From Tubiluchus corallicola (taxonomy: Eukaryota; Priapulida; Priapulimorpha; Priapulimorphida; Tubiluchidae), in contig JAQGDQ010000505.1 of the NCBI GenBank assembly GCA_030141605.1, positions 1-64,000 on the forward strand: 64,000 nucleotides of DNA. The letters run 5' to 3'. The notes under the pieces are model-generated. The model made no database searches. It was not told the DNA's origin and was given only the letters and a program-made list of their open reading frames with translations. The translations under genes were made by a program, and so were the position numbers. Below, piece by piece: positions 1,729-63,675 of the stretch (the stretch's first letter is position 1; the number at the start of each line of letters is the position of its first letter).

Positions 1729-5073
<3,345 letters not shown>

Positions 5074-23700: not shown

Positions 23701-26700
23701 GAGTTTGGTCCGGGAAAACGCCTGTTGCGGGAAGCCGTCGCCCTCCCGCAAATTCTAAATACTCCTACTACACCCATCGTTGAATGGCCTATTCAACTAT
23801 TATAGGCACCATGTCTGGCACATTCCCATGCTCTAGAAATAAGAGGCATAAATTTCGCGAAAAACGGGCAAAAAAGGGCCTTGGAGGTTTTTCGCCCTCT
23901 CGTTCCTCGATTTTAAATTAGCTTGTTTTAAATACTGTAATACACTACTAACTAGTAGCTATAGAGAATGGTAACCGAGAACTTTTAAAAAATACTATAA
24001 TACATAATACTGACATGTCAGTTTTAACTCTTCGTACAGCTCACAAACCTTTTTAATTGCATAGAACAGTAAGAACCCATTCTTCTGACACGTCCGAAAT
24101 GAAAATGCTACAGAGGAAATCAAAGTCCTTGAGTTGATATCCACTTTAAAGGATCGCTTCAATGAGTGATGTCGCCAGCCATGAAGTCGCAATGGAAGAC
24201 TTATGCAAGCTGCCTGAGCTGAATAAAGAGCCTAGAAATTTGATTTTTCTTATTAGCGATGAAAATTTCACAGTTTTTCCAAGAAAATAATAATGTGTTT
24301 TATCAAAATAACAAAATCTGCATAACGGTTTGCCTATTAGTCACTCTGATTAAGTGTTTTCATCTTAGTCTGAATACTTGCTTACAGCTATTTTGATGTA
24401 TTACAAAAATTTTTTGGCAATTATAAGGCAAAAAAGTTAAATTCAAAAATTTGAAAGTTTTGCTCATGTTGGTCATTTCACATTAATGAGTAACCGAAAA
24501 AAGCTTTAGTTAAATCAAACCAACTCAGAATAAAAATTACACTTAAATCATTCTAGAAAGCGAAAATGAATTTACAAAATATAACAAGGAAACAAATATA
24601 AAAAGTTATTACTGCTCTCTAGTAAAATAATACCTCTGCACATGTTCTAAAATCAACATTTGCAGCACTGATATAATTGACCAGATCAATAGTTTCCTCT
24701 CCAAAACCAACTTTTGCGATGCAACCTTCAAAACTGGAGCTGTTCGAAATACCACTGCAAATAAAAAATGGCAAAAGAGTGACCAAACACTTGACACTCT
24801 TAACACATTTTAATCTAATTTTGAACCATTATAATCAAATGCAACTTGTTAATTAATAATTCGAAATGACGCAGAGAAAAATGAAATGAAATAAAGTTAC
24901 GTATATTAAAGAAGATTATATTTAACATCCTTAAGCTTTAACGCCTATCCACATTTGAGATACCAAAGATGCTTCAGATTTGTTGAAAACCATTGTTAAC
25001 ACATTTGAACTACTTAAGTCCACATTTGAGTTACCAAGACACATTTGAGTTACCTAAATCTACATCTGAGTTAACGCAGGTCTATATAAGTACAAGTACA
25101 AGTACAAGTACAAGTACAAGTACAAGTACAAGTACAAGTATAAGTATAAGTATAAGTATAAGTATAAGTATAAGTATATTTATTTCCACTCTGCATCTAA
25201 CAATAGTAATAAAAATACAGATAATTTCACTGAAGTAAATATAAATATAAATGCAGTATTATCCAGAAATTACAAAATGCAGCATATATATGTGCAAATT
25301 ACATTACAGAATAATTTTGATGCATACAGTTTGAGCCTAAAAGCATAGTTTGACAGGCCAAACTGTATGTGGAAATCTTAAAAAAAAGATTAATAATTGA
25401 AATAATGAAATAATGATAATATATACATAAAAGTGGGGGGGGGAGTAGTGAATGAAAGATGAAATGGAGCGAGAACTATGATTATAAAGTGTTCAGTAAC
25501 CTGTTGAGCATAGTCACGTTTTATTAAGATTACTGTGGAAAAAGAATGCAGGTTATTACCATTATCAAATGGTGTTACTCTCAATACTTTTGAAATATTT
25601 CTTTTCTGACGGTTTTTTTAAAAATTGAAAGGGAGTGACTACATTTTGAATTGCGGCTTAGTCTATTCCATAGGACTGGTCCCATATAGCTAATGAAATG
25701 TTTTGCCATATTTGTTCTACAACGTCTTGGTATATTTTCATTATGTCTGGTATTGTATTTTTTACATTTAGCTTGACTGGATTTTCAAAAAAAGTTGGAA
25801 ATAAGTTGTTGTTGGTTCTATACATGTATATACATCCATTAAAATTAATAACATCATCCAGAACATGTAACACATATACAACGCAACATAATGGTCCAAC
25901 GGCATACTGCAGAAGTAGGCAAATGAAGCCAAACATTTATGGCTTCAAAAACACAAAAGTTAGTAAAATCGATATACACTGCAACAACCAGCCAGGATTT
26001 TTAACCAAGAGCTTGAACACACATTGCCTTTCTTGGCAAAAATAGTTACTTCCCATAAAAGGCTTGAAAATAAAAATTATTGACAAAGTTACCATCGCTG
26101 CACGAATTTGTGCTAAAGCAAAAGTATAAAAAGCGTGCAAATAATGTTTGCAATATTCCTAACTAAATCATGATCTGTAAAATAAAACTGTGCAAAACTA
26201 AAGGCAAAACAAATGTGTAAACTTACTGGACATTATAATCATAGGCTACTCCACCAACGAACAACCTGTCTAGAGACACATCAGTCGCATTTGGAGTGAT
26301 GACAGCACTAAATGCCCTTTCATCTAACTTTGCACTAGCAATGAGCTTGTACCTCATGATCTGTGAACAAACAAAATATATTATTAAATACAAGTGTGTT
26401 TCACACAATATATAAAGGGGAAAAGATATTAAGAAAAAAAGCACGAATTGTCAATGTAATCTAAAAAAATAAAAAATTTTCAAGTTCAGTTACTAGATTC
26501 ACTATCAAAATGCTCTGATAAGAGAAAATACTTATGCAAAATAATCACACAAAAATAGAACTGTTATCCAGGTTTTGTGTATCTTTTGTGCAAATCATGA
26601 ATATATATATATATTATTAAGTATGTAAACATGTTCCGCACTATACATTAACCAGGTGAACAAACTTCGTTTCTTTAAGTTTCACATCTCCACTAAATTC

Positions 26701-26883
26701 ACTTTTATAATTCACGTTTGTTACTTATCCTCGAGCTTTGAAATTGTCCTACAATAAATTACGTCAGTTTTAATACCTAGTTTTTTATCTGACCTCATTG
26801 CTTTTGTCGTATTTGGTTTCGCGACATTGATTTGTTTTCAAATTACAATTTCACAAAAAGTAAAATTATTATTACTACTACTA

Positions 26884-26934
<51 letters not shown>

Positions 26935-29900
26935 ACTACTACTACTACTACTACTACTATTATTGATATTATTATTATTACTGTTATTATCATCATCATC
27001 ATTACCATCGCTGTCATCAATATCGTTGACATCATCGTTATTATCGTGATCACCATCATCAACACGGTAATCAGTACCAATATCATAACCATTATCATAG
27101 TTATTTGCAATGATTTCCAGAACTGAATTGTCTATTCATACTTACAGGCACAACCACAATAACAGGAGAGCCAACCATTGCAAATTTACCAAATTTAACT
27201 CTACCTACTTTACATCAGTCATCACCAAATCACATAAGACTTAACAACCTTCAACTCACTGGTTTCAAAACAACTACTATATAACGAAATCTGCTCCAAA
27301 AAGACCAGATTCTCTTTCCATCGTAATATCCGATATTTCTTTCCATTATATCATAATATTAAGACAAAATAATCATCAAAATAATCAAAAGTCCATCTCT
27401 GTCTATCGTGGACAGAAAAAACACAAAATTACGCCTTGTAATAACTGGCGAAATGCACAACTTTACTGTTACATATTTGTCGCAACAATTTGTCAACACT
27501 TTGAAGCACTCTCCTTGTTCAAATTTAGATTGAGTTACAACTTTTTTTACATTTCTTGACTTTCAAGTCTGGTATAAAAAATTTAATACATCATAACTGG
27601 CCAGGATACTTTAAATCTAGCACATTCAGCTTCTGACTTTAAACACTTTACCTGTAATGTATGAAATTTGCCATCATCGATTCTGCTTCGACTTTTCATT
27701 TCTCGTTGCGTTCCAGAAGATGAGATAACAATAATAACAAAACCATTATGCAACTCAACCAGCACATAATCCATCTAGAATAAACAAATTAACAATGTGG
27801 TTTTTTCTATTAGCATCGAGTTTTTCATGCATCTATAAAAGAAATGCTGCCATACATTTCGCATTCGTTCTGTAACATGTGGACTTCTTAATCCTCAAAG
27901 AGTCGTAGAAAAAAATTAGGAATTTCACTTCATTCTAATGAAAAATGCAGAGCTATCTAAAACGTTGACAAAGAAAACAGTGCTGTATGATATCTGACCC
28001 CTGCATGATCTCTGACCCCTGTATGATCTGTGACCACTGCAGCTAGATGTGCAGGAAAAAATATGGAACTTAAAAGCTTGTTAACATGACCATAGATTAC
28101 CAGTCAAGCATAAGGGATTTCTTAAGACTGCAATAGTATTTTATAATTATGCTGCTGTCCCTGTCGGAATCCATTGCGTTGTTGGCTATGTCAATTTTTA
28201 CATTTCTATAGTTCACGTTACTTCATACAGATACTATCACATCTTTCTCCTCTTTTTATTCTCTATTAACCTTTCTTTCTACTCCTTTACTGCTCTTTTC
28301 TGTTACACTCAGTCCACATTCATTCGGGGTGCTCTAAACAAGTATTACTTCTTGAGTACCCGCGGGTCATTTGCGGCTTGGCATCTTCTGTACATAATAA
28401 TAAATATGTTATTAAATACTTTTATGTACAATGCTGTAATGATCGTTGTGGATATATTTAATAAATAAATAAATAAAAAATAAATAAACATATACTTGTA
28501 TATGTAAACTAATTATACTTGTATGTGTAAACTGATTATCTACAGGTTAGCATTATAGCAAAAGCATATTTTACCTGACTGTAACTTGCTGCAAGAAAAA
28601 TCAGGCCATTTTTCTGCAGAGATTTAACCACTATGGTCACGTTTAGTTCAATTAAACTTCCAAGTTTAAATGTTGACAGCTCCACGAAAGAGCCAGAGCC
28701 AGAGCCAGAAAATGCAACATTCCTGCCTATTTTGTTTCTTTCCACAGGAACAACTTTGCTGCAACTGAAACATATGCTGGTCATAGCATTACAAATGTTT
28801 CACTCATGAATGTTTGGTACGATTACAGGTTTTAATATTGCATATATTTGTAATAAATGCAATGTTACTGTTGATAATTTTACTAAGAAATGCAAAGCTA
28901 CTAACATAATTATTTTGAGTAAATCTGCACTAAATGAAAACGATTATCTAATAAAAGAATTTGTAATGGAGATCTTAAAATGCGTGGATGATAGAGAGTT
29001 TTTCTTTCTGAGCAATAATGAATTGAATACCAAGCTTAAGCATATTGTCTCGATGTAACTTTTTGTTAAAGTTGCATCATAATTATGCCTATTAATAAAT
29101 TGTACTTGTTACTAACCTGTAGACATTTACTTATTCTTTTAACTCCTTATGTATTAACCTTTTTTATGGTGATCGCATTGACGTACATATCGTGTTGATC
29201 GAAAAATAAATTATAATAATAATAATTAATTTAAAAAATCTTTAAATTAATTGTATCAAAAAATTATCAATTGACTTCAACAATTATTTTTCTACATTTA
29301 AATTTTATTATCATATTAAATATAGTCAATTTACCTTTTCAATGTTTTAGCCACACCGGTTTGCATCATTGCCTTCCACACATTAACAGATTCGTCATTA
29401 AAAATCACGTCATCAATGCAACCCTTAAAACTGACAAAGCGTGCCAGCTTCAGTCTGCTCGGCAGTCCCCCAATATATAATGGGTTGGACAGTGGAAGCA
29501 ACAATGCAGTATTATTAAGAGCAGAATTGACGCTAAGAGAATCCACGGTCAACTCTAGAGCCTTTCCAATCCTAGAATGTACAAACGGATATGTTATGGT
29601 ACATGCATTTAATACATAACATGAAGTTCATGGAATATTTATAAAGAAAGCAATGTAACGTGATGTAATTTATTTTGATATCAGTACAATAGAACAGAAC
29701 ACAAACATGTACAAAAATAAAATTATAACCAAAATAACAAAATAATTAACATCATATGAGAAAATAGGTCGTACATATTGTACTGCAGAAAGCTGAAGAA
29801 GCTGAGAGCTTGTAAAAGCTTTCAGAACAACTGAAAAAAAGAGAAGAAAACAAGGTTAATAGTAATAAAGTTTGGGAAAAAACTAGTGTGAAGAATGGAG

Positions 29901-32900
29901 AGAGATGGAGGGTATATAATTTATGTTATACTTATTAAGAATGTAGTGTGTATTGTGATAAAAACTACATTCTTAATAAGTATAACATAAATTATATACC
30001 GATATTACTCAATGTGATAGTAAGTGATAGCCAGAGCTACAACAGATATTTCAGGGAGAATTACTGTCTTTATTGAAAATGTTAGCTTTGTATTTATTTT
30101 TAAATTGATGAGAGGATTTTTTAGTTCATCACCCAATTCATTCCAATGCCTTGGTCCTGCATTGGCAATGAACTGGCGTACGCGTCTGTTCTGCAGAAAT
30201 TAATAACAAACGCATTTCTTCTTGCATCAAGATATCGAACATTCAACCCAAACTGGATTATTAGAAAAAGCGGGAAACAATTACTGTTGATCGTATGCAT
30301 ATATACAGCAGTGTTCAATTCGATAACTAAAATTTTATTGGCTTTAAAGTTAAAGTTAAATTTAAATATTCTCATTTTTTTAAGGTTGATGATAGAGTCC
30401 AGAGCAGCACTGTTTTAGCTAAGCTCCAGACGGTTTATTTCTACTGTCGACATAGCCGATAAGAAACCTAGCTTTAGTCGCGCCAGCCGTTCAGTGATGT
30501 GAATCGAGCTAGACGACATTTTTGCCGACTGCGAAGACTTTCGCTCTTGCAATAATGACGTGACACTGCAAAGCACTGATTTATGGCAAACGCATTGTGG
30601 ATTCGCAGTCAGATTGTGCGCATGCTAGCAGAGATACTAAGCTTCAGAAATTTTTGAACGAGAAAGGTGATCAATTCAAAATTAAATACACAAAATATGC
30701 AACACGTATGGGATCTTTTGGGTGTTGTGATTCGTTGGTAATCAAGATGAGCCTCGCCAAGAGTTGGATTTAAATTATAGTTGCAATAAATCCATTGCTT
30801 TTTTTATAATAATAACAAAATTGATTTACTGCGTGAGTCAGCTGATGTAGTAGCAATTGACATCTAACATATCGTCAATCATTTTCGTTAATTGCCCAAT
30901 CAGCGTGCAAGTTGTTTCACACAGCCCTGCAGCAGGTACGTTCGGGACATTTAGCTACAGTTCCGTTTAACACTGTTATGAAAAATGATCAACTTTTCAT
31001 TAGTTAGCGGGAGAAATATCTTCCTTGTTCTAGATTTTATTATTGTCAAACGAACTTGCAAGTGAATTAGTGGAAATATATAGTCTAGTTCAGTTTATAG
31101 GAAGAAATGCACAACGCTTACGACTATAAGTTGCTGATTAAACCATTTTGCAAGATACCATTGGGACTTATGTGACTCGGGCATTCAATATAAGGGTCGT
31201 CTATGGAATGGAACAGTCAAATTTATTTCATTTCCAAAGCCTGACAAATGGAAAAATACAGAAACTGAATAAATCTTGCAGACGAGCACATGATGAATTA
31301 ATATAGAAAATACATCGCAGGCTTGATGTTCGTATGTTTAAAGGCAAGAGAGACTTAATATTTTTGATGTTCATTTACTGTAAAGCAAGGCTAACGGGCT
31401 TAGTTTTTTTATTATATTTATGGCTCTGTATTTTGTAGTGCTTTAAAACTTCGTCTCTACATTCTGTTTAAATTGAAAAGTCATTTTTTGTCTACTTGAA
31501 GTGTTAACTTCATTTAAAAATAGCTGCTGCTCTGCAAATTTGTGTTGATGAAAAAGTGCAATCAGTTTATCTGCAGATTAGACATTACTTGTGACTGTCA
31601 TGCTGTTTAGTTTAGTTTAGCTGAGACAGTTGTTGTCCCGAATGCTGCTGAGCGTGCTTACGTGCTTATATGTGTGCACCCAAAGAAGGTAATCGTATGT
31701 CAAATATGGCAAAGTTAGGCTGTTATACAGGGTTAATAAATGAGGTTTAGTAAAACAAAAGCAAAAAATATAAGTGAGACTGAGACGACCATGGTCTTAA
31801 CTTTGAAAACTCAGAATCGATAGAACTGTGGTTGAGAAAGAACAGAGTACAGGGCAAGAAAAAGGAGATTAAAAAAATAATGATAGCAAAAATGCTGATC
31901 CACCTTGCAAAATCGACCTTGTGCCACTGTCCATCATTCACTTTCTTTGGGTGAGAAATGTGATCAGCTTCGTACACCGTTGCCAAAGTCACTACTGCTA
32001 CAATTTTACCTTTGTCAGTGATTATCTTTATGCTGTTCTTCTAGAAAAGAGTGAACCGTAGAATTAAGAGCAACTAACTACTTGCAAAACTGGATTAAAA
32101 TGATTAATTCATGAATTAGCTTAATCATAAAATAAAAAAGCTGCTTGTACATAAAGGAACAATGTTTTAACTGTCGCTTGTAGCAAGCAAATAACTAACT
32201 TTACCATTACATTAACATTATGGTTAATTACAGTGATTAACATAGCTAAAAAACATAACATTGATAATAATTTAGTTTTACGTGTGTGAATCATTTTTAT
32301 TTTTCCAACTATTAATAGTTTAGAGACTAGTACTATTCTCATTACTTATGGTTGCAGACAAAGTGTAGAGCGAAAGTGCTTGCTTGTTGCCAAACTAAAT
32401 ATAGTGTATAGACACACTGACACTATTGTCTCTTGAATGAAGTGTATTTCAGCAGGAATGCTAATTAAAAAAGAAATAAAACAAATCCACAGCGGCTGAA
32501 TCTCAATTTATCCATACCAAATCAGTTGAGCTGGCGTACATGATCACGGCTCGGTCTTCCTGAAGAAACTTAATTCTAGCAGAAAAAGTATGAATTAAAC
32601 TCGACTCAATTGCAGAAGCGCCAACAGAAACTGGCAATGATCTTCCTGATCCCCCAACAAAGGCAGGAGTAAGCTAAAAAATGATGTACAAAAGTATAAA
32701 AATTAATGTTACTGAGATTCCAGATGAAAGCATGCAACAAGTATTGAAGACTGCAACAAAAAAGCTGTTATTAACACATTGTAGTCTGCGCAAAACTAAT
32801 AAAGACAAAGTTTGCAGATAGGGGCGTAGCCAGGTTCTAAAGTTAGGGGGAGGAAGCACATAAAAAAGGTGCCGTGACACTGACCAAACAATTTTTAATG

Positions 32901-35900
32901 CTTTGATTATACATTTCAAATTTGCATTTAAAATCAAAGTGCAAGGAAGATGCAGTTTTAAAGGAAGCACAAACTTGTTATTTTTTTGTAAAAATAAGAC
33001 ATTATGAAAAGTTTTACAGTAACCTCATAAATCTCAAAACATAATAAAAACATGCGTGTTATTTCAATTTTAAACGCAAAATGCAAACAAAATGAACGAA
33101 TTTTGGCGCCGTCGAAAAGATGACAATTTTAAAAAATGTGCTTGGGGGAACGGTTGCTCCCTTTCCTTCCCTATTAGCTATGCACTGTTTGTAGACACAT
33201 ACAGTACATTGTACATTATTAGATTGGCAGGCAAATTACTATTTCTTTTAGTATATTTTCACAAATGCAGCAGATGCAGAAATTGTGTAATTTCACTTTT
33301 GGCAGCAATACATTGTGTGAAGCTTACTTTTAACTTTTCTAGTTTGGCATAGGCGGCCTTTACAGCTGCCCGAAGATTCAGTAACCTCGCATCTAGTTTT
33401 TCCTTTGCAGCAGCAACATTCGATGCTTTCTGATCAACTCTTGACAGCAAGTTTGACACCTTACGTGAATTCTCTGACAATCGACTGGCTGAAATATTGA
33501 ATAAAACAGCTAGACCTGAAGAACTAATTGCTTTGTACACATAATAACAGTACAAGATAACATATTAATAATAATAATAATAATAACATATTAATAATAA
33601 CACTTGATAATAACAATAAGAAGTAATAAAGCCATTGTTATTACAATGAGGTTAACGACGATAATGACAATCAATGCTGGTAATGGAGACACTAATTATG
33701 GACAATGGTAATGAAATGATGAGACAATGAGGATGACTATGACAAGGACAACAAAGAATGATGATGGCAATAACGAAGATAAACAAATGATGATAAGATG
33801 ACCTTTCCAAAATCTAGAAACAGATAGCTACTGTAACAGCAAGCAAGAATGCAGCCGCCTATGCAAAAATTTAGCACCAAACTGTTACTGTTTATTGTTG
33901 TACAAAAGGACAAAAATACCTTTGATCTTTATCCTTTTGATGAGATTGGCTCGATGTATAGCCTCTTGCTCCACAATCAACGCTGTCCTATTGCAGGCAG
34001 CTCTTTCGTTGGAAACCTTGTAATAGACAACTTCTATTTGTTAGGATTACACAATGACCATGAACCGAATAAACCTTATTATTTTAAATTAAACAAACAA
34101 ACTACAATTATGTCCAATCTGTACATGATGTGGATCTAAGTCTACAATACTAACTCCTCGTAATAGACAAATTTTCACTTTCCTGAGATTTGAATGATTA
34201 AAATCGATGTAAACATTACGCTAGTAAGATAATATTTGAATTCCTGAACCATAGCATTTTTATTCTTGTCAGTTAGCTTACCCTTTCCTCCAGGTAAGCT
34301 GCTTCTTTAACTTGAGTGATTCCTCTAGCTTCAATGGCTTTCAGGGAGTTGTACGTATCGAACAACTGTTTTGAAATTTCAGAAGCACTGTGAATATAGT
34401 TTCTGACAATTGTAAAATTTTGTCCTATCGTTTCAATCAAAATTGGCAGCACGTGTTTTCCCTTCATATCAGTCATAACAATACTTGTATCTAAAAACAG
34501 TAAAACTATTTTAAGTTTGAGATAGATAGTGAGTAAAAGAATGAGTGAAATTTGGTTTGCAATTGCAAAAAAATAGCATATCTTTCTAATTGTGATATCC
34601 ACTAAACCACACCATACGCAAATAGATAGCTCACCTTTTACAAAATCGATAATCTTTCTCGAGGTGGCAAAAGCTCTTTTTTCAAGAGCTATGCTGGAAT
34701 TGTTTGCGGTCATAATCAGTAAGTTCATTTGTCCTGCAAAAATTGAGAACAACTAAAATTCTTGGTAGGATACAGGTAAACAATAATCAGAGACGTGTAC
34801 ACAGATATGACTAGCAGTAAAAAAACAACTATATATTCTGAAATCTTTGCCTGCTCAGTCAAAAGCAAAATCAAAATTTAATCTTAAATTGTCCAACGTC
34901 CACTGCCAAAGAAACTCTTTATATGAAATCATGTTGTGCACCCCAGTCAGATAAGAGGAATTTTGCAGAACGAAAAAACAACAAGTGGCTTACTTGCCCT
35001 GTCTATCAGATTTCCACATAAGTCCTTCAGCCATTTGCCTTCTCGCAACAAATAATTTAGAATTCTTGCAATGTACATAGCTATTAAGGATTCACTATGC
35101 CCAACGTCTTCATTGATAACTTTATACATTTCATGCACAATGTCGTCAGTCCAATCGTCTTCAAAAATATCATCAAAATCGTCACCAGAACCAAAATCGA
35201 TGAAATCATCGTCATCATCCGTGAATTTCTCAGCGACATCACCACATTCGCAATGTTTGCTATTATCGACAGTTTCAACTGTCAACTGTAAAGCACCTGT
35301 TGGCTTGGCTTTGCTATTACACTTGCAAGGCTTTGCTGTCTCCCCCGGAGGAAACACATAATCAAATTTCTTGTCAACTGGTTGCCGAATTATCTGAAAT
35401 GATGGAGAAACTGGTTCAGTAATGGCTACTGAAGTAGCAGTGGCCTCCATAGATTCAATGTTGAACTCAGGTTCCTCATCAGCATCTGATTCAAAATAAA
35501 AATCTTCCGTGTTTTCCTTTTCAGGTAATTCCGGAGGAGGACCTGGAATAATGGGTGGCATAATAGTTGCTTCAGCTGCAAAAGAACTTTCAAATGTTTT
35601 GTCACCTCCAACAGAAGTTACACTGATGTCTTCAAAAGAAGTCACATCTGGTACAGTGTGATATTTAGCGGTAGATGACATTGTGCTAGTAACAAGATAG
35701 GACTCGGTAGCAACTTTTACCACATGCTTGCTACCGGATGGGTCGGTATGACTTAGGTCTGGAAGAACTGCACTAATAAGTGTGTTGTCAGTGTCGTAGA
35801 AATTACTTTCTGAAAAATCCATCAAAACGGTTTCAGTGGATGAATCCGCATAAGACAATTCAGTTGTTTTCAATTCTGTTGTAGACTCTGTAGTAGCATT

Positions 35901-38900
35901 ATCCTCTGAAAAGTTGTAATATTATTTACGTTTTATTTAGAAAGTTAAAACAGCTTGAGAAACGTTAAAGCTGCATAGTACCTAAAATCACAGCAGCAGC
36001 CACACTTTCTGATTGCTCATCAATACTCAAGCTTGTTAATTTTAATGATTACCTCCTTAGCTAAACACAGTCATGCATCTTGAGCAACCAAATAATTTAA
36101 ATTATCGTAACTTAGCTGCACCCTATATATATTTTATTACTAACAAGTTAATATCTGCAAGCATACATACATAAAATGATATGTCAAGATTACATTATAA
36201 TATTTATATATATATATATATATATATATTTACAAGTACATAATAAATTTTACAATAAATGTGTTGCACACATCGCATATGACGACTTTATATATGCACC
36301 TATTACAGAATGACCTGAAGACAAGCAAATGTACAGAAAATGCATGTTTCATTAATGAAATTAATACCACTTTACCTCCTCCCCATAACCAGTCCCATAC
36401 TGGAAATGCACCACGCTTTATTCTTGGTGAATGATCTAGAACTGCTGCTTTTGCGCAAAACTGCAAAAAGTAAGCATAATGAACAAATGCTTATCTATAC
36501 AAAACATTTCTGAGCTCACTTGTGAAAAAAGCTGTAACTGTGTCTAGTAAATAGTTGTCATCATATTTTTATATCAAAAATTAAATTAACATTTTTTTGT
36601 GAAAGATATAATTTAGCATCATTTTGCTAACTATGATAAATGTCCTACCTGTTCAATGTAGTCGCGCACTCGTTTCACAGATAGAAATGCACGATGCATT
36701 GCATTGTACACATCCACCATTACCCACCTCCTTTCTATGATTCGTGTCATCACATCAGTAGTACTTTCACATGTTAGTGAACTGTAAATAAATCAAGCTG
36801 TTTTCTGTTCTACAGCCTATATTTAAATAATAGTGCACATCACATTCATTTTTCTTAATAAGGCCATGTCACAGTTGAATACTGAAAGTTGAAAGAAAAC
36901 GGAGACAATAGTAATAAGCAACGTCAATAGAAATGATTAGACTGTTAAATGATCTTCAAAATTTTAGACAAATTGAACATATGTCACAAACCTTTGTAAG
37001 TTCTTAAGGCTTTCTCGTTGCTGACTAAGTGATCGTATAAACCCAATAATTTCAGTTTTAGCAGTAGCCAGAGATGCAGTTTTTTGCAACGCATGCATAT
37101 TCTTTATCTCCTCATGCAACACTTTCTTAAATAGTTTCATTTCAGTAAATGCTACAGCAAGATCCTGTGCAATAAAACAAAAAAAACAGCTGACGATGAT
37201 ACAACTAACATATTAAACAGAAGTAAGATTCATAGCTGACGATGATACAACTAACATATCAAACAGAAGTAAGTTTCATAGCCGACGATGATACAACTAA
37301 AATATCAAACAGAAGTAAGATTCATAGCTGACGATGCTACAACTAACATATTAAACAGAAGTAAGATTCATAGCTGACGATGATACAACTAACATATTAA
37401 ACAGAAGTAAGATTGATAGCTGACGATGATACAACTAAAATATCAAACAGAAATAAGATTCATAGCTGACGATGATAAAACTAACATATCAAACAGAAAT
37501 AAGATTCATAGCTGACGATGATACAACTAACATATCAAACAGAAGAAAGTTTCATAGCTGACGATGATATAACTAACATATCAAACAGAAGTAAGTTTCA
37601 TAGCCGACGATGCTACAACTAACATATTAAACAGAAGTAAGATTCATAGCTGACGATGATACAACTAACATATTAAACAGAAGTAAGATTCATAGCTGAC
37701 GATGATACAACTAAAATATCAAACAGAAATAAGATTCATAGCTGACGATGATACAACTAACATATCAAACAGAAATAAGATTCATAGCTGACGATGATAC
37801 AACTAACATATTAAACAGAAGTAAGATTCCTAGCCGACGATGATACAACTAAAATATCAAACAGAAGTAAGTTTCATAGCCGACGATGATACAACTAAAA
37901 TATCAAACAGAAGTAAGATTCATAGCTGACGATGCTACAACTAACATATTAAACAGAAGTAAGATTCATAGCTGACGATGATACAACTAACATATTAAAC
38001 AGAAGTAAGATTGATAGCTGACGATGATACAACTAAAATATCAAACAGAAATAAGATTACATAGCTGACGATGATACAACTAACATATCAAACAGAAGAA
38101 AGTTTCATAGCTGACGATGATATAACTAACATATCAAACAGAAGAAAGTTTCATAGCTGACAATGATATAACTAATATATCAAACAGAAGTAAGATTCAT
38201 AGCTGGCGATGATACAACTAAAATATCAAACAGAAGTAAGATTCATAGCTGACGATGATATCAACTAACATATCAAACAGAAGTAAGATTCATAGCTAAC
38301 GATGGTACAACTAATATATCAAACAGAAGTAAGTTTCATAGCTGGCGATGATAGTACTTCATGTCACCAACATATAAAACCAGTTATTTAAAATGCACTA
38401 CTAGCTAACCAATGAAATGACAGTATATAACAGGTACTGGTTCCTATCACCAAGTACATAGCAAAAAACTAAACAGTTTTAAAATAATTACAAAATACTG
38501 CAAAAAAGGAAAAGTATCATTAAAGGTAGACCACCAAGTAAAAATAAGAAAGACTAAAAATTGTCCTTACCTTGAGTCTGCTTTTTGCGTCATCCAAAAA
38601 CGATTTTGCTCTAAAATACATTTTCTCGTACCCTCTGATAGTGCCCAAAATCTTCAAATTGTCCTGATATTTAACAAAAATTTCAAACAAAATTTGGAAA
38701 ACAGTATATTTTAATTCACTCATAAAGCAAGCTGAAATGACCACACAGAGTAATGTGCGTGAAAAACAAAAAATGCAAAATATAAGAGAAAGAAAACAAA
38801 GGAACTAACAAAGGAAACTTTAAGCCAGTAAAAAATGCATTCAGCAGCCGACATATGTAGCTGTATGTATCCAGCTTATCAAAAAATAAGTACTGGTAAT

Positions 38901-41900
38901 ACCATAGCATATAAAAGCCTAATGATACAAAAAATAATTCAGTCCATGTAATAGCTAGTATATGCATAGAAATGTCTATGTACCTATAATAAAAATAAAT
39001 GCAACAAATCAAATAAACATAAGCTAGGAAAATCAAAATATTTTCAACATCAAAATATTCAAAAAACACTTTACGCAGTCTTTAACAATGACTTCAAATA
39101 TTTAGCTTGCTAAGTATGACAGAGTGCTGCTCTGCCAGTGAAAACTCACAACTGCCTTGTTGTAACAGTGAATTTTACTCATCAATTCACGTGTGATTTC
39201 AGTTTTTTCTGTAGTGATGGCTTTTTTGCTACAGGTGAGATTAAGACTATTCGTTTGAAATTTGTATGGTATTAATCTGGCAGCAAGTGGAAATTTTCTG
39301 TTTATTGTATTCGGATTCGCTTGCCATTGCCTGCAATTAGGTCAGCTTGATACTGCCATGGCCATTTTAGCTTTGTTTTAAATTAAATCCTTTGCAACAC
39401 ATACTTCACACAGCAGTCTCGGAAACTACAGGCATACTTGCACGTCTACATATTTTGGCAAATTGGTTGAACGTCTGATCGAGAAACAACTGACAAAGTT
39501 CTTTCAAGAATGTCACCTAACTGACACAGCACAAGAAGGCTTCATCCCAGGATGGAACTCAGTCAGATATTTATTACGATTAATAACGACTTTCAAAAAC
39601 CACTGAACTTAAGGAGTGAAATATTTGCAATATGCTGTACTTTTGAAAGAGCTTTTGATAGCAAATGGTATGAAGTGCAACTCTACAAGCTGCTGGACAT
39701 GAATGTTAAGGAAACCTACTTGATGTAATCAGAGATTTTTTGAGCAATGCAAAAATGAATTTTAAAATTAGTAATCATATATCAACAACTTATGAATGCA
39801 GTATAGTATCTCCAAGAATCTGTTCTTCCTCCATTACTATTTAGTAAGTTTGAAAACGTAAACGTCAAACTGATTAGTGATAACATAAATACGATGATGA
39901 TGGCACTATATATATATTAATATATTCGCACATTTTAATTATTATAACAGTGCAATTTATAAATACTTGCTACTAACAATTTACAAGAATATATATTCAC
40001 TTAGTTGTATAGCCATAGGAGAAGAAACAAATAATAGCAATAATAGGTGTTACAACATTGCTCAAGAGTTTAGTAATAGTTGCTGTTGTAGGTGGAGGAC
40101 AAATATAAATTCTGCTGCAAATAAGAAAGATGTACTTCCTGTAGGATGGAAAGAGAATGACTGGCAAAATATTGGCACAGACTCAAAATGGATGATAAAG
40201 AAATAATTTACGTGAACGATCAACTTGTTAGAGTAAGAACTGACTAAGCATGCACGTATTATTATGCTTTTGATTAGTTATTCAGAAATGATGTTATCAA
40301 GCCTAACTAATAGATGTTGTATTGAGTCGTGTATTTTCATTAACAACTTCAAGTTAAATTGTGCCTGCAAACAGAGGTAAATGAAGAATTAAATAATAAT
40401 AATAATAATAATAACACATTATTATTCGTGTACATGAATTGTGAAAAAGGCTTTTGTCAATATATGTAGCAACATAAACCAAATGCGTTTAGTGGCACAA
40501 ACACTTTATTATTGACTGTCTTTTCTGTACACTACGTTGTGACTACTAGATTAAAACTGTAAAAGCTCAAATCAGTTGAAACTTATTAACCTTGGGTAAT
40601 GCATATCAGAAACCAGTCAGGTGAGAAAATGATTCACTGTAGTCTAACTTGCTGTAAAGTTGTAAAGTTGCTGAAATTTATAAAGTTCATAAATCAAACA
40701 CGTGAATCAGTTCATGACATGAATACATAAACATGTCCCTAAGAAGAAAGCCCAATATCTGCTTACCATCAATTGCACCTGTACATTCTCGGCTCTGAAA
40801 ACAGACCTCCTAGTTTCTTGGACCTCACCCCAGGCTTTCATTGAATACAGTTGAAGATGAGCAAGGGCTTCATTCACGCGAAGAAGTTTCACGTTTGTCA
40901 CGTTCACTTTTGTATCCATCGGCTTACAACAACTGAAAACAAACAATCCATGAAAGAGGCAGCTTCTTGTGACATTAAAAAAAGTCGCATCCTCTTTGGG
41001 ATGCATTGCAACTTCAACAAACAGATGAACATAATAAAAAGCTATAATTCTTATTAGAAAGCACTTTCCATTTCTCAGTATTTTGAATTCACTGATATTG
41101 TACCATTGAAACATCGTAAAGTCTACTGTTGATAATATGGTTTAATTTTATTTCTGGTTTTCTTTATTTTTTGAATTTGCACATAAAACAAAATTAACTT
41201 TTAACATAGCACTTTTGAAAGATGCAATAGTTTTTATGAACTAACATTAAGAAATTGCACATGGTGAGAAGTGGTGTGTTAATTTTTTGCATATCTAGAA
41301 ACAGCCCAATTTTTAATTTTTTAACATGAAAAGTGTAGATATCAAGCATAATTATGTATTATTGTGTATAATTAATAAGTACATAATTATGTGTTTATGC
41401 ATAGAAGAGAACTTCTACAGTTTAGCATAAATAATTTTAATCCTCATAAATCTGCATTTGCATAAATAGTAGTTACACAATACCAGTTTTCTTATTAAGT
41501 TTTCTGACAACAAACTTGCAGACAAACACTCTTATCAGGCTAACTTGAATGTTCTCTATAAACAAAATGTGATCACTTATCAGCTTTCATCTTTCTATTA
41601 AGAAAAGATTCGTCTGTACGACAGTTTAATGATAATGTTAAACAAATAACGGCCATACAAATGATGACTACATCATTAACAACATTCATTCCAGTTCAAA
41701 TGTTGAACTATTTTAAAGCACAAAAGATTCTCAACTTATAGTTTAGCACTGTATTTAAGCATTGCAACTACTTCGTAAAGTTGGTTGCTTGTCCGCGTTT
41801 TTCATTTCTGATAAGTTTGGTTTTAAAAGTTTTATAATATTAGGCAAGTAACATTGTGTGTTTATTAACATTTGACAGATAGAAACTTTAGAAATGAAAG

Positions 41901-43181
41901 TGACATCAAAGATTACAATAGTTAAATTTACTAGCAAATTTCAGTTATTGTGGTTTGCTTCACATACATTCTTGTAGAACTTAAAGTCAAGCTCAGCTTC
42001 AAGTTTATTTCGATTAAGAGTCATTACAAAAAAGGCAAATTTATTGATAGAACAGATAAATGAGTTTTTGTAAGGAATGTTCGTGAGCATGCGCGCCAGT
42101 GTCGCGCGCATTGTTTCTAGCCGACTAATCAACGAATCACATCCGTCATCTTCTTGAAAATCACCCATTTGCTTCCGGTGAAACCCCACCCTCTCTCCAC
42201 CCACTACTAAAGTAGGAATGTAATTTTTGTGTGAACATTAGGTTTAGGTACTTTTAACATTGCAGTGTTTTTTTGGAGTGGATTTTTTATATATAATTGT
42301 TCAAACTACTTTACTAGGCATTTGGTATGATTTTGTAATGTATTGAAATATTGCAAACAATGCTTTATTGCGCTAACATCATAGATGCAAGCAATACTGT
42401 GATTAGTATAGTCACGTATTGAGTGGGGCGGTATTTATATGTCTCCCACCTTTTTTTGTCTTGCCACCTCGAATGTATTGTCATTTTAGCAAATGACCTC
42501 ATTTTCTCAACGAAATTTCATTCTTGGTGCTTTTGCAAAAAACTAACCAAGTTCAACCAATTTTACCTTTAGGTCGGTTTTATGAACATTAGTTATCAAA
42601 AACGTGCTTTTAGACATATAATTATATAGTGTTTCTCTAGTCTCTACTCTCGTTACACCCGCGCAAAGTTATCGACTAGTTTGATGGACTAGTTCCGGAG
42701 GTTTATAATGTTTATTCCTCGCCCATCGTGAAGCCATGTCTGGCATCTTGAGGATCAGCTGGCAGAAGACAGATACAACATCTGTGCTGTCTGGAGATGA
42801 ACGAAACTTCGGATTCTTACTACCGGTTTTTGTGCGCGGCTGACGTATGCAATCGATATCTAGTAATTATTTCATGTTGCGAATAAAAATTAGAATATAA
42901 AGTGAGTAGAATGAAATTTATTGAAAATAAACTATTTATAATAAGAAATCAAGTAAGATAAGATGAGGCGACAAATTAAAATTTCATTGATTCATTCCCT
43001 TTTCCACTTGAAGAGTCAGCTATGCTGTTTTTGTTTTCTAATATCTTGTTCAAAATTGTTTTATCAAAGACCTTGTTTTGTTTTCCAATGTTCCAAATAA
43101 CGCTTAAAATCCTTGGAACATGAATAAATTCAAATGGTGGTCGTCCCCTATCTCTTTCTCTCTCTCTTTTTCTCTATCTAC

Positions 43182-43263
<82 letters not shown>

Positions 43264-46200
43264 CCTTCTCTCTGTCTCTCTTTCTCCAAAATTGTTTCTA
43301 TATATAAATTACAAATCATTTATAAGTACAGAAAATAATTTATAAATCACAATGCTGGTCATACAACTCATCTAAAAACGAAAAAAATCTAAAATCCAAA
43401 AAATTAGTTCTAAATCTTCAGAAGATAAAACAATTATACAGCTTAATGCATTCAAAATATTACCTTACCCCCTTAATGGATTCAAAGCCAATTGGGTTGC
43501 TAATAGTTCAAAAAAGGAAGCCTTTTTATCAAATTTCCTCCTCTCTACGTCATCCAGAATTTCCTTTGCAAAGTGGGTGTACTGATCTAGCATTCTAAAG
43601 TTTTTTCGCCGGGAAAGTACGCTGTAGAAGTCACTGACCACGGAACGTACAGCTGAAGAAAACGTATACGGTCATTATTGTGAAAGTAGTAACATTAGTC
43701 ACGTGTATCTTTAGCAGTTTATTAAACATTTATTTACATAGTAAATGTAAAACATACATTTCACTATTGTAAACTGTAACATGAATGGTTTCACATTTTC
43801 CTCACTAATCTTAAAACAATTTCATCTTTCATTGTCTTCACATTGTACAGTCAGTGAATGTTGTCAGAAGTTTAAAAACTCACCATCTGTTCTTGTATAA
43901 ACATCTTTAGCTATTTGAACAAAAGATGCCAAGCTGCTGTAGTAGTGTTTCCTTTCTTCTTCAAGTTTCTCGTAATCTTTTATTTTCTTACAAGATATAA
44001 GATGTAATTTCTTTTGTAAATATATTACTAAAAAGTGCAAAACAAAGTCAAAGAAGAAGACTGATATAACAATAAAATAATGGAAAAATGCAGGAGAAGA
44101 AAAGAAATTCATAACAAATTATATCTAGTGACTTCAAGAGAATGCACAGGCGGAGTGGTATTTATCCAGTTAAAGTGGTTATTAAATCTAAGCTTGCATA
44201 ACAAAATCATCCGTAAGTCGGCAATTAAGTTTTTGTAGAAATTCACATATTCTGAATCTCTATTTCATGAGGATCATTTTGATACCAAACTCATTGCTCT
44301 AAGCTGTTATTTCTAAGTGAGATAATCCACAATGAAGTTGCAGGCTATGCACTGAAAAACATAACCTTGAGAAAATCGCTATTAACGTTAGCCATTGTTT
44401 TTTGTCGCGTTTCTACAAAACACTTAGCAACCGCACAAATTTTGGTTGCTACGGACTTTGCAAGAACACATTGAAGTTATGTCTAAATCCAGTACGTAGC
44501 TCTTCCTGACGAAGGTCTGGACTTGGCAGCAAAAAAACCCTAAGCAAAATGACTGCTTCCACGACCTACTATAGGAGTCTGAACATACGAGTTTTTGACA
44601 ATTGTAGTACTAGTTTCTAGTCAGAATAGTGGGTAGGGGGTTAAAAAATTAAATTTTTAGTATTTTTTGAAAATTTTCTTATAATTTGAAGCTAGAATAT
44701 AAAAGCCTAATACATTTACCATTTGCTTTTATAAAAACCAAAATTTTCATGCATTTTACATTGAGACATCATAACATAGTTTTCACTACGCTGACTTGCG
44801 GAAGGTTTTGGTTTGCAAGCACACAAATACAAAATATATCTTTTTTTTGCCTAACCATAAAATAAATGATACACAAAATTACTTCACAACAGAAAAAAGA
44901 ATAAGCATGAAACTATATAGCTCATACACAATTTTATATGCACCAAAAAAATTTAACGTGAGAAGTCTTCAAAAATCGAGTAACTCTTAGTCCAAAAAAC
45001 TCACTATTTCAGCCCTCTGTTCAATTCCAATCAGTTTTGGTTCTGTATTTGAGGCATCCAACATCACAGACAGCAACATTCTCGAAACCTCTTCAGTTCC
45101 TGTGTCACGTTTCACCTTATAAGCAAAAAACACATTTACGGAATATTTTCAGCAAGAATAAAAAGTAGAAGTGGTATGTATACACATCTCAGTGTAAATA
45201 GTTATTATGCTTCATATAAAAAGAAACATTTACTATAAAAGTCATTGTAGATGCTTAGCAAATTTAATTAAACGTGACAACTGACAGAGCTAAAAATCTA
45301 CTAAATTAAATCAAATTAAATCAAATCAAATCTACCAATTTTATACTAGCAGCAATCAAATATTCAGTCAATATTTTCGTACTTCCTTCAAAAAATTTAT
45401 AAAAACCTTTAGTCCACAACATTTGTAGAATTATTTGAAATTTCTCAAGCGATTTTGTATATCTGTTATGATCTGTGCTTTTTTTCTGCAATAACAACAG
45501 TCTGCTGATTACAATATGAAGACAGTGATACATGGAAGAAGTTTACCAAGAGCAAAATCTGCAGGCATGGTACCGTGTGTTCAGACTAACGTGTTTGATT
45601 AATTAAGTGGCAGGTAAAAATATTCAAATTTGATTTCATTATTTTTCTTCTTCCCAAATAAATGGTTTTAACAAGCAAATAGAGTGACTGGGCTTTCAAT
45701 TTAACAAATACATCGTTATATGTGTGCTTGCATAACAAAACCGTCCATAAGACTACGTTAAAACTGCATTATGATGCTTCAAAGTAGAATGACCCAAAAA
45801 TTTGGTCAACTGTCAATTTTTCGTATTTTGCAAAAACCAACTCTAAATATATTGGACTTTCATATTCTAGCATCAAATTATCAAGAAAGTGTTCAAAAAC
45901 ACTCAAAATTTAATTTTATAACTCCTTACTCACTTTTCTGTCTAGAAACTAGTACTGCAATTCTAAAAAACTCATTTTCAAACTCTGATAGTACCACGTG
46001 GGAGCACTCATTTTGTTTCATTTTTTTGTGTTGACAAACCCAAACCTTCCGTCAGGAAGAGCCACCTAAACATAACTTCAAGGTGCTTTTGTGAAGTCCA
46101 TAACAACCATACTTTCGTATAGTTGCTAAGTATTTTGTAGAGACGCGACGAAAAACAATGACGGACTTTAACAACTATTTTCTCAAGATTATGTTCTTCA

Positions 46201-49200
46201 CTGCATAGTCTGCACCTCAACTTCAACGTGGATTATCTCAGATGAGAAATAACATAGAGCGATGAGCTTGGTATCAAAATGATCCTCATGAAATGAAAAT
46301 TCAGGACATGTGAATAACTAGAAAAGCTTAATTGCCGACTTATGGACGATTTTGTTATGCAAGCACACATATAAACTATTTTACCTGGTAAAATTACAGC
46401 AAGTTTCGTGAAGAGGTATCATACGATCATTTTTAAGCATATTAATTAAATGGTACTTTGAAAATACGACGGCAAATAGCACTGCAAACGAAAGTCCCTA
46501 ATACAAGTTTCTTACACAGATTTAACTGTCAACGTGATCTCCAACTTCTGAATAACACAATTGTCAATAATCTTAACGAACTTTAATGGTGCAAGATGAC
46601 AAGTCGTGATAGCGCTTTCACTATACAAATTAGCAACAGCAAAAGAATATGATGATAGTAAGTAGCAACCTCACACTTGTCTGAAAAATGACTCAACAAA
46701 GATGCAAACACTAAACTAATACATACTGCTTTTCTCCTAGCATTCCTCCCAGGCAACACCCCAACAATGATTGCCTGTCTCTATGGCAACAAACAAAACA
46801 AAGCACATTAAAACAAAAAATATTATTATGAGTCACAAAACAAAAATGCATATGATTTTAACATGCCAGTACAGAGTCTCTCATAGAAGCTTTAACTTTT
46901 GGGGGCTCTGCAACATGCCACATATAATTACGACTAATGGAATAAGCTGCAGTATTCTTCCACCAAATAATTTATTAACGTTTGTCTGACTATTGTTGAC
47001 ATATTGTAAAATTATTTTGTTATTATATTTAACAGTATTGTAAACTGTAAGTTTAATTTGCTTGACTATAATTATGTCATGTTTTGGTGAAGCAGTTTGG
47101 TTTGAGGCAGTCTAACTAGCTCAAAGATTGCGAGCATTATATGTGTTTACTGTAGTAAGAGTTGGACGCCTTGCTAGTCTGCTTGTCAAACCACGAAAAA
47201 GTTCTTGCTAACAATATATTCATTAAAATGTTTGAAATTTCCAAGCATGCCAATATGAAATATCATCCCTGTAAAAATTGTTTCAGAGGCATTCTAATAA
47301 TGTTATGGAGTTCAACAAATAATCTTATTACACAAAGATTCGTTCATCATCACTATCTTTGTATGCATGATGATTTGCATAGCTCAAACCTATGCAAAAA
47401 ATACAAATACGTGTATAGCAAAACAATATCAGGTTTCATTGAATGATAACATAATAACTATCTCTACATATTATAAACCCAAATTTCCACTTTTTTCAAA
47501 CAATCTATTAAAAACTTGAAGCTGTACATATACCTTTAGCTGTTCAATTTGCCTTATTATAGCCTTTAGATAAGCCCCAAGTAACTGAGGCCAATCAGCT
47601 AGGATATTCTGTGTATCTTCACCAATGCTTCTTAACACGTCCAGATCTCCTAGCAATGACTCTTCGCACGAAGTGCATTCTGCGAAATACATTTGAAAGT
47701 TAGAAAATGCACACTTTGCCTAGTGATGACTTTGAAAGAAATGTTTAAACGGAATGTAAATGCTGACTTACCAACACCGAAACATTCAACCGATGGGGAA
47801 GTATTCGTGGCATAAAACGACGAGCAGTAATCGCATCGCCTGCCAAATGTATTAGGCTTACAATCACAATGACCCGTCTGTGCATCACAAGACTTGCCAA
47901 GAGAACCTTCCGGATCACAACCACATACTACAGGAATAAAAGATATTTTAAACAGCTTATGATTATATCTTCTTGCCATTGTTTTTGCTGTGTAGAGAAT
48001 ACTGGAATGGGAGCAATGGGACAACAATGACACTGGTCACACCATAGATCTTCCATTTTTAAATAACATAATAATTATTGAAGATGCACAATCAAACAAC
48101 CTTTGAAATGTATTTTCACAACAACACAACAAAAATAGTAAAATATATAAATGCCCAACAACAATTATCACAACAGGCAAAATTTTATCATAAAAGGCAA
48201 AAAAATCAACAATTTAAAGAGTTGAAAGATTTTAGATAATTTTAAGTACTATGGTAATGCCAATGATAAAATTTTCTGACGGACCTTGTTTTTAATAAGC
48301 ATAATAATAATCATGAAATCTCCTAGTCACTGAGCATTAAAATTCATATGATAACTATGCAATCTTGTCAGTCAGAGAGTACTGAATTGCAGAATGCAAA
48401 AAACGCAAGTTTTAACCATGCATAGACATGAATACATGAAAGAGCCAGTTTCTAGGAATCACCACATTTATTGAGCGACGGTAGTTTTGACTGTATAGCC
48501 TTTATCAAACTAAAATCAAATTGATTTATAACTTGATGATGGCTATAGTAGCCGAGACTCGATAAACATGGTCATACATAGACAATTTGGAAAGTTCCAG
48601 TAGCCAGCAGCACAACGATCACATCTTCGTCCATTGACATGGACCAAGCAGGGACACTGTCCTCCATCAGATTCACAGATATGACTTGACGAACCATCCA
48701 GATCACAATCACACACTGAAAAATGGATCACAATAAAAAAATCATTTAATACATATATTTAATACATATATAATACACATATCATACAATACATATCATT
48801 TAAACTTTGCTAAGCTTGTACTTAACAATTTTCAAGAATGTAAATCACACATTTACCAGCTTACTCGAGTTTACTATGAATTTTGCAAATTTGAAACACA
48901 TGCAGAAAAAGTTCATATTCATCACCTAACAATGACCACACAAAAATATTAAAACAACAGCTATGTAACTAGAAAGACAACTTAATGGCAATTTGCCATT
49001 GTTGTCAAACTTAGCTCATTACAGATGTTTAACAACACTTAGTGTGTCAATTCGCACTGTGTACAAAATGTTATGAGAAGTTTCTTTGGCTGACTAACTA
49101 ACAAACACTGATGACACATATCCTTACCATACTTATTATTCATCCCAATTTACTTAAAACAGTCGAAGATTTTTAAGCCTTATTTTGGCAATCCTGTCAC

Positions 49201-62494: not shown

Positions 62495-63675
62495 ACAATA
62501 AACAACAAACAAAAAAGTTTACATATTTCTTTACTAATTTCTTTGGGGATTGTTGTGTATCTCGTCATACACCAACATCATAACCACAACTTCTTTTATA
62601 ATGCATTCTTGTGTTTTTGCTCACATAGGCATCAAATCTGTAGTTTTCACAATGTGTTCAAGAAGAAACGGTGCAGTAGAAATATTTTGTTTACATAAGC
62701 ATCAAATCTGTAGTTTTCATAATGTATTCAAGAAAAACAGTGCAGTAGAAATGATGAAATGTGCTTGCAAAATTACAATGAAATGTGAATGACTGTTAAG
62801 TAATTTAGTAAATGATTATACTACACTAGATGCTAAAATTGTGAAGGTACTACGAAAAGCAATGCTGTTATGAAAAACACGTTCAATTTCTACAGAATGG
62901 ATACTTTGAATAACACTTGTTATTTTGTCAAAAAACGAACTACTGCATTACGACATAAGAATTTAAGAACACGTGTAATTGGATACAATTAACATAAAAC
63001 TATACTCGGGTGTAAAATACTACTAATGTTACGTTATGAATGTCACATTTCGACATTGTATTTGCCTATTCATAGATGCTTATCTCTTCATGTTAGCTGC
63101 CATCTTTAGTGTATAGCACATTTCAGCACATCACCATATTACTACTGCACCGTTTCTTCTTGAACACATTGTGAAAACTACAGATTTGATGCCTACGTTA
63201 ACACCATATTACTACTGCACCGTTTCTTCTGGAACACATTGTGAAAACTACAGATTTGATGCCTACGTGAACACCATATTACTACTGCACCGTTTCTTCT
63301 TGAACACATTGTGAAAACTACAGATTTGATGCCTACGTGAACACCATATTACTACTGCACCGTTTCTTCTGGAACACAATGTGAAAACTACAGATTTGAT
63401 GCCTACGTGAACACCATATTACTACTGCACCATTTCTTCTTGAACACATTGTGAAAACTACAGATTTGATGCCTACGTGAACACCATATTACTACTGCAC
63501 CATTTCTTCTTGAACACATTGTGAAAACTACAAATTTGATCTTACGTAAACAAAAACACAAGGAAGTATTATAAAAGAACTTGTGCTTATGCTATTGGTG
63601 TATCACGCGATACACAACAATCCCCAAGGACATTAGTAAAGAAATATGTAAATTTTATTGCCTGTTGTTTATTGT
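62495..63675. mobile_element. Fold-back element with 70-bp tandem units in its arms
   Basis: Outer inverted ends (acaataaacaac and gttgtttattgt, then tttacatatttcttt and its inverse) enclose longer arms. The left arm (to about 62757) contains two units of a tandem sequence. The right arm (from 63131) contains six units of exactly 70 bp in inverse orientation. The unit includes ccgtttcttcttgaacaca and gaaaactacagatttgatgc. The spacer, about 62758-63130, is AT-rich and non-coding. Long inverted arms built of tandem units are the hallmark of fold-back type transposons. Confidence 0.88.

What the first reader, a model, noticed from the sequence alone, without database searches (positions are those of the whole stretch)
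34994..35905. A 912-nt phase 1-1 exon inserts a proteoglycan-like segment into a laminin coiled coil
The exon encodes 304 residues that are Ser/Thr-rich, then Pro-rich, then very acidic. It has CKC and CEC pairs and a Ser-Gly at 1188-1189 inside DFGSGDDFDD, the acidic context favoured for glycosaminoglycan attachment. Both ends are phase 1, so it can be included or skipped in frame. Laminin coils are not known to be broken by such a domain. This is the best candidate for an undescribed system here: a laminin that may be a part-time proteoglycan.
Basis: partly seen in the sequence, partly recalled or inferred. Interest (0 to 1): 0.88.

Follow-up and report, generated by a model that had tools for sequence, protein, structure and literature searches.

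The report
Acidic disordered insert in laminin alpha
A second, fast-changing laminin alpha gene in an unnamed animal carries a large exon that puts a floppy, negatively charged, possibly sugar-chain-bearing loop into its rod; sugar-bearing laminins and laminins with a broken rod are already known, but this combination looks new.

Summary
The exon is real: exon 20 of a minus-strand laminin alpha gene (LN, 4 LE, coil, LG), 912 nt, GT-AG, phase 1-1, open, with coding-like codon use. The non-coil stretch is residues ~931-1200. It starts in exon 19 and ends inside exon 20, whose last ~50 residues are helical and in register with exon 21, so exon 20 looks built into the rod rather than a clean cassette. 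Against that, the coil length fits canonical laminins better without exon 20. Ser1188-Gly has 13 acidic residues among 20 flanking; of 1433 Ser-Gly pairs in 120 laminins two reach 8 and none more. The strict worm motif [ED][GA]SG is not met. No homologue was found. The same genome holds a canonical long-armed alpha gene, in which no such exon was seen. [quoted passage not shown] Most likely: a constitutive, disordered, anionic loop in a specialised alpha paralogue, at about even odds (0.45) bearing a glycosaminoglycan. RNA and protein data are needed.

The parts
34994..35905 (-). Exon 20 (residues 949-1252): disordered S/T-rich, Pro-rich and acidic segment, then ~50 helical residues
35151..35905 (-). 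Non-coil part of exon 20 (residues 949-1200)
34994..35150 (-). Helical tail of exon 20 (residues 1201-1252), in heptad register with exon 21
35184..35189 (-). Ser1188-Gly1189, candidate glycosaminoglycan attachment site
35319..35327 (-). CKC (residues 1142-1144)
35244..35252 (-). CEC (residues 1167-1169)
36376..36460 (-). Exon 19: end of the first coil part and start of the loop (from about residue 931)
36413..36424 (-). RIKR (residues 933-936), the only RX[KR]R in the 1441-residue model; furin-like by recalled consensus
34635..34733 (-). Exon 21, coil resumed
34282..34490 (-). Exon 22, coil
33920..34016 (-). Exon 23, coil (weak splice sites)
33328..33488 (-). Exon 24, end of coil
36649..36781 (-). 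Exon 18, coil
36992..47679 (-). Exons 11-17, first coil part (exons 12, 13, 16 less certain)
47772..58371 (-). Exons 1-10: signal peptide (by reading), LN domain and four LE domains
50193..50491 (-). Exon 7: LE2 with an enlarged S/T-rich then acidic loop (residues 337-412)
20921..32673 (-). Downstream LG-domain exons (set incomplete)

Best explanation
Exon 20 is an ordinary coding exon of a second, short-armed, fast-evolving laminin alpha paralogue. With the end of exon 19 it makes a ~270-residue disordered, anionic loop (residues ~931-1200) that bulges out of the alpha strand of the three-chain rod, after which the alpha helix resumes. Shown: exon structure and phases, composition, predicted coil on both sides, no such exon seen in the genome's canonical alpha gene. 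Inferred: the exon is used constitutively; the loop is O-glycosylated; Ser1188 is xylosylated and carries a chondroitin or heparan chain (about 0.45); the loop works as a flexible, charged, possibly sugar-bearing side branch in mid-rod, comparable in kind to the alpha-4 and gamma-2 chondroitin sulfate sites and to the beta-chain knob. The confidence given is for the constitutive disordered anionic loop, not for the sugar chain.
For: 24 exons, all 23 introns GT-AG, phases matching, no stop, 1441 aa; LN 6.1e-61, four LE stretches, LG on three exon groups; alpha-type LN (PDB best alpha-5, 1.5e-78; groups with the alpha rows in a 61-row tree). Codon use and open frame of exon 20. Coil to ~930, none to ~1200, coil from ~1203; helices only from exon residue 251 on. 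Exon 20 tail and exon 21 share the best heptad register (1 in 7 by chance). Five non-helical runs of 24-59 residues in the insert against 23 at most in six alpha coils. Acidic SG outlier. Laminin proteoglycans exist.
Against: Coil length without exon 20 fits canonical alphas better (586 against 570-586; ~620 with it), which would suit a skipped or late-added exon; exon 12 (37 aa) makes this loose. Strict C. elegans motif [ED][GA]SG not met (FGSG). Coil exons match no Laminin_I or Laminin_II Pfam model, and no local alignment to the 120 laminins at E <= 1e-3 passes residue 937. The AlphaFold model is from one sequence, mean pLDDT 38. No homologue, so no conservation of Ser1188 can be shown. No RNA, no protein data. 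Whether the genome has a xylosyltransferase could not be asked (tool busy).
Confidence: 0.6

Rival explanations
1. Regulated cassette: exon 20 is included in some tissues and skipped in others, so that the laminin is a part-time proteoglycan.
For: Phase 1-1, and the skipped form stays open (1137 aa). Its coil length, 586, is close to six alpha coils of 570-586.
Against: Symmetric phase alone is common; skipping removes ~50 helical residues that are in register with exon 21; the loop begins in exon 19, so the skipped form still has a Pro/Gly break (SPRIKRGAFPVWDWLWGGG).
Confidence: 0.2
2. Neutral spacer: the loop grew under relaxed constraint in a degenerating or fast-evolving paralogue and carries no glycosaminoglycan; acidity and Ser/Thr content are by-products of disorder.
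For: No homologue; exon 7's LE2 loop has also grown, by a tandem repeat with 19 of 30 residues identical; the LN branch is the longest of the tree at 1.76; strict [ED][GA]SG not met.
Against: 13 acidic residues around one Ser-Gly is far outside 1433 control pairs.
Confidence: 0.45
3. Exon 20 belongs to a separate nested transcript.
For: No sequence similarity ties it to laminin.
Against: Both splice phases fit exons 19 and 21; heptad register continues into exon 21; codon use resembles that of the laminin exons.
Confidence: 0.05
4. Processing hinge: RIKR at 933-936 is cut by a proprotein convertase, so that the alpha chain is nicked in mid-rod and the loop is the exposed linker.
For: The only RX[KR]R in 1441 residues lies in the loop. 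That furin cuts RX[KR]R and that laminin alpha chains can be processed is recalled, from no call.
Against: Motif only; no data on cleavage.
Confidence: 0.2

Closest known systems
Laminin alpha-4 with chondroitin sulfate near its N-terminus (site 40 in the table of PMC8418075; Sasaki, Mann and Timpl 2001 seen only as a reference)
   Same: Laminin alpha chain carrying a chondroitin sulfate chain; reduced short arm (PMC6744579)
   Different: Site is at the N-terminus, not in the coil; alpha-4 lacks the LN domain, which is present here
Laminin gamma-2 with chondroitin sulfate at site 803 (PMC8418075 table)
   Same: Proteoglycan laminin; that site 803 lies in the coil region is recalled, from no call
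   Different: Gamma chain; no large disordered insert compared here
L-beta knob of laminin beta chains
   Same: Cysteine-containing interruption of the heptads of one chain inside the rod (PMC6744579)
   Different: Short, with CGG..C in 60 of 60 beta-size chains and no CGG in exon 20; present across beta chains, whereas exon 20 has no homologue found
Canonical laminin alpha of the same genome (contig C162)
   Same: Laminin alpha with LN, LE and coil
   Different: Long short arm; nearest to Priapulus caudatus of nine proteins compared; no exon like exon 20 seen in its coil region

Membership tests
Laminin alpha chain | LN domain of alpha type | tested here: met
   Pfam 6.1e-61; best PDB match alpha-5, 1.5e-78; groups with alpha rows, on a long branch
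Laminin alpha chain | LE domains | tested here: met
   Four LE stretches
Laminin alpha chain | Long coiled coil opened by a Cys pair | tested here: inconclusive
   Heptad pattern and CTSCEESLLGDL start, but no Laminin_I or Laminin_II Pfam match
Laminin alpha chain | C-terminal LG domains | tested here: met
   Pfam LG hits on three exon groups downstream; full set of five not shown
Chondroitin/heparan sulfate proteoglycan | Ser-Gly with acidic residues nearby | tested here: met
   13 of 20 flanking residues acidic; control 2 of 1433 reach 8
Chondroitin/heparan sulfate proteoglycan | C. elegans strict motif [ED][GA]SG | tested here: not met
   FGSG; motif from PMC8418075
Chondroitin/heparan sulfate proteoglycan | Glycosaminoglycan chain on the protein | not testable with these tools
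   needs glycoproteomics or enzyme digestion
Chondroitin/heparan sulfate proteoglycan | Xylosyltransferase gene in the genome | not tested
   PF12529 request did not complete
L-beta knob | CGG..C cysteine pattern | tested here: not met
   60 of 60 beta-size chains have it in the last 600 residues, exon 20 has no CGG
Cassette exon | Same phase on both sides, frame kept on skipping | tested here: met
Cassette exon | Both included and skipped transcripts | not testable with these tools
   no RNA data

The most novel reading that the evidence does not exclude
A lineage-specific laminin alpha paralogue whose rod is opened by a ~270-residue glycosaminoglycan-bearing, convertase-cleavable loop and is used as a switchable mid-rod proteoglycan, through inclusion of exon 20 or cleavage at RIKR.
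Probability: 0.15. Interest if true: 0.68.

Novelty: new variant of a known kind. Interest (0 to 1): 0.42.

Why it matters
Laminin rods are built from three chains wound together (recalled). An alpha chain that tolerates a ~270-residue charged loop in mid-rod would show that the rod is a place where new functions (charge, sugar chains, cleavage) can be added, in an animal that also keeps a canonical alpha gene. It gives one precise residue, Ser1188, to test.

Tried and rejected
Homology of exon 20: no match with residues 840-1441 of the model (7987 candidates scored, E <= 0.001) or with the exon alone (862 candidates, E up to 10), both limited to proteins of 0.55-1.75 times the query length; no Pfam match; PDB only E 0.77; none in plasmids, a collection unlikely to hold animal genes; one copy, itself, in its genome.

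Exon 7's loop and exon 20 as copies of one element: local score 30 against a shuffled mean of 32, maximum 50; rejected.

Canonical coil profile against this coil: gave no usable hmmsearch report, and the MAFFT alignment did not place the insert sharply; no conclusion. Coil lengths: six of 34 alpha proteins gave start and LG1 and are used; a seventh, P0021, gave 273 and was dropped as gapped; in the others one end or both failed to map. Place of the gene among alphas on the LN tree: branch too long.

No RNA family and no tRNA in the window.

Papers: ten searches. 'laminin, glycosaminoglycan attachment, coiled coil, insertion': 0 papers. 'laminin alpha, disordered, coiled-coil domain, acidic, insertion, serine-rich', at least 5 of 6 terms: 7 papers, none about an alpha-coil insert by title or shown abstract. 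Xylosyltransferase terms: 0 papers. This does not prove that none is in print. PMC11260871 (2024 laminin review, passages) does not contain 'chondroitin'.

Full report
The gene. The minus strand from 58371 to 33328 gives 24 exons, all 23 introns GT-AG, phases matching, no stop, 1441 residues. Exons were found by anchors, splice scores and codon log-odds. The first-stage residue number S1188 agrees with this model. Pfam finds the LN domain (6.1e-61), four LE stretches and, downstream, LG domains on three exon groups. The LN is of alpha type. The short arm is reduced to LN plus four LE; no L4 domain was found. Weak points: exon 6 (donor outside consensus), exon 8 (weak donor), exon 12 (optional by phase), the exon 13 acceptor, exon 16 (codon score near zero), exon 23, and the incomplete LG set.

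The exon. Exon 20 is as described: 912 nt, phase 1-1, open. Its codon score (0.29 per codon, trained without it) is in line with the other exons, and the stop-free run of 324 codons exceeds the longest (199) in 100 simulated 64-kb windows. In the 343.5-Mb genome the search returned one match, itself, out of 3 candidates scored.

Where the coil breaks. A heptad and helix-propensity scan shows coil to about residue 930, none to about 1200, and coil again from about 1203, inside exon 20. Single-sequence AlphaFold agrees: exon residues 1-250 below pLDDT 50 without helix, helices at 251-264, 271-287 and 290-302 (mean pLDDT 38, weak evidence by itself). The exon 20 tail (1225-1252) and exon 21 (1253-1280) have the same best register, a 1-in-7 coincidence otherwise. 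So the loop is ~270 residues from exons 19 and 20 together, and skipping exon 20 would remove coil too. Against this, the length from the first coil Cys to LG1 without exon 20 is 586 residues, against 570, 576, 577, 580, 585 and 586 in six alpha chains (in most of these the start was taken some ten residues early), while with exon 20 but without the disordered part it is ~620. Exon 12's 37 residues make this comparison loose.

Controls for the break. Runs of non-helical composition in six alpha coils reach 23 residues at most; in the insert there are five such runs of 24-59 residues. In 60 chains of beta size the longest run in the last 600 residues is 18-69 (the 69 is LE sequence); in 14 of the 14 printed, one of the two runs shown holds the CGG-type knob, and 60 of 60 have CGG..C there. 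So the scan sees the known break.

The Ser-Gly. Five SG pairs lie in the model; 1188 has 13 acidic residues among 20 flanking, the others 0-3. Of 1433 SG pairs in 120 laminins, two have 8 and none more. The 120 are related sequences, so these are not 1433 independent draws. PMC8418075 (passages) states that xylosylated Ser is typically followed by Gly with acidic residues nearby, that C. elegans sites follow [ED][GA]SG, and that motifs alone are ambiguous. FGSG misses the strict form. I put occupancy at about 0.45.

What is known already. PMC8418075 lists laminin alpha-4 (site 40) and gamma-2 (site 803) among human chondroitin sulfate proteoglycans. PMC4195691 (passage) says that laminin-411 has a chondroitin sulfate chain. 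PMC6744579 (passages) describes L-beta as a cysteine-rich interruption of the heptads and says that deviations from a regular coil are common in the long arm. So neither a laminin proteoglycan nor a broken laminin coil is new; a large acidic loop in an alpha coil is not in anything I saw.

Which animal, and is it the only alpha? The LN family search of the genome gave 19 matches on 12 contigs. C162 encodes a canonical long-armed alpha: of nine alpha-type proteins compared, Priapulus caudatus (P0003) is best in 36 of 49 exon bins, with 59 percent mean identity against 52 or less for the other eight. The animal is therefore perhaps a priapulid or a relative; nine references are few. In C162 the coil starts within 172173-172505 and seems to end near 181582; the plus-strand frames of 110 codons or more there read as helical or LE, none like exon 20. 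An insert split over shorter exons would have been missed. C2320 is a conserved beta chain (63-75 percent to its best matches). The window gene is a divergent alpha: 41-47 percent to seven of the references over its 4-5 matched bins. The insert thus appears to be its own.

Mechanism (inference throughout). The most economical reading is growth of a disordered loop in a specialised alpha paralogue, as in exon 7, where the LE2 loop holds a tandem ~30-residue repeat (19 of 30 identical). In the trimer the loop would bulge from the rod while beta and gamma continue; CKC and CEC may close a small ring; acidic, O-glycosylated and perhaps glycosaminoglycan-bearing sequence would keep it extended. RIKR at 933-936, the only such motif in the model, may allow cleavage.

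Noticed in passing
window 50193-50491 (-): Exon 7: the LE2 loop is enlarged by a tandem S/T-rich repeat (19 of 30 identical) followed by SDPDDGDDNDTG; not similar to exon 20.
   Followed up: partly
window 36413-36424 (-): RIKR, the only RX[KR]R in the laminin model, lies at the start of the loop.
   Followed up: partly
window 37188-38353: 46-bp tandem repeat, 25 copies, in the intron between exons 16 and 17.
   Followed up: no
window 3509-4516 (+): Exon of a neurotransmitter-gated ion channel (Pfam Neur_chan_memb 1.1e-62).
   Followed up: no
window 2577-2856 and 43151-43286: Long simple repeats: (AAT)n, 93 copies, and (TC)n, 68 copies.
   Followed up: no
window 63132-63552: 70-bp tandem repeat, 6 copies.
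   Followed up: no
L007, L008, L009 (contigs C1787, C2138, C2264): LN-like exons with the same translation on three contigs; L007 and L009 are identical DNA: uncollapsed haplotypes or duplication.
   Followed up: partly
L014-L023 (contig C162): Canonical long-armed laminin alpha gene, nearest to Priapulus caudatus of nine proteins compared.
   Followed up: partly
window 18466-18780 (+): Frame that reads like part of a concentrative nucleoside transporter (my reading, from recall; no family search done).
   Followed up: no
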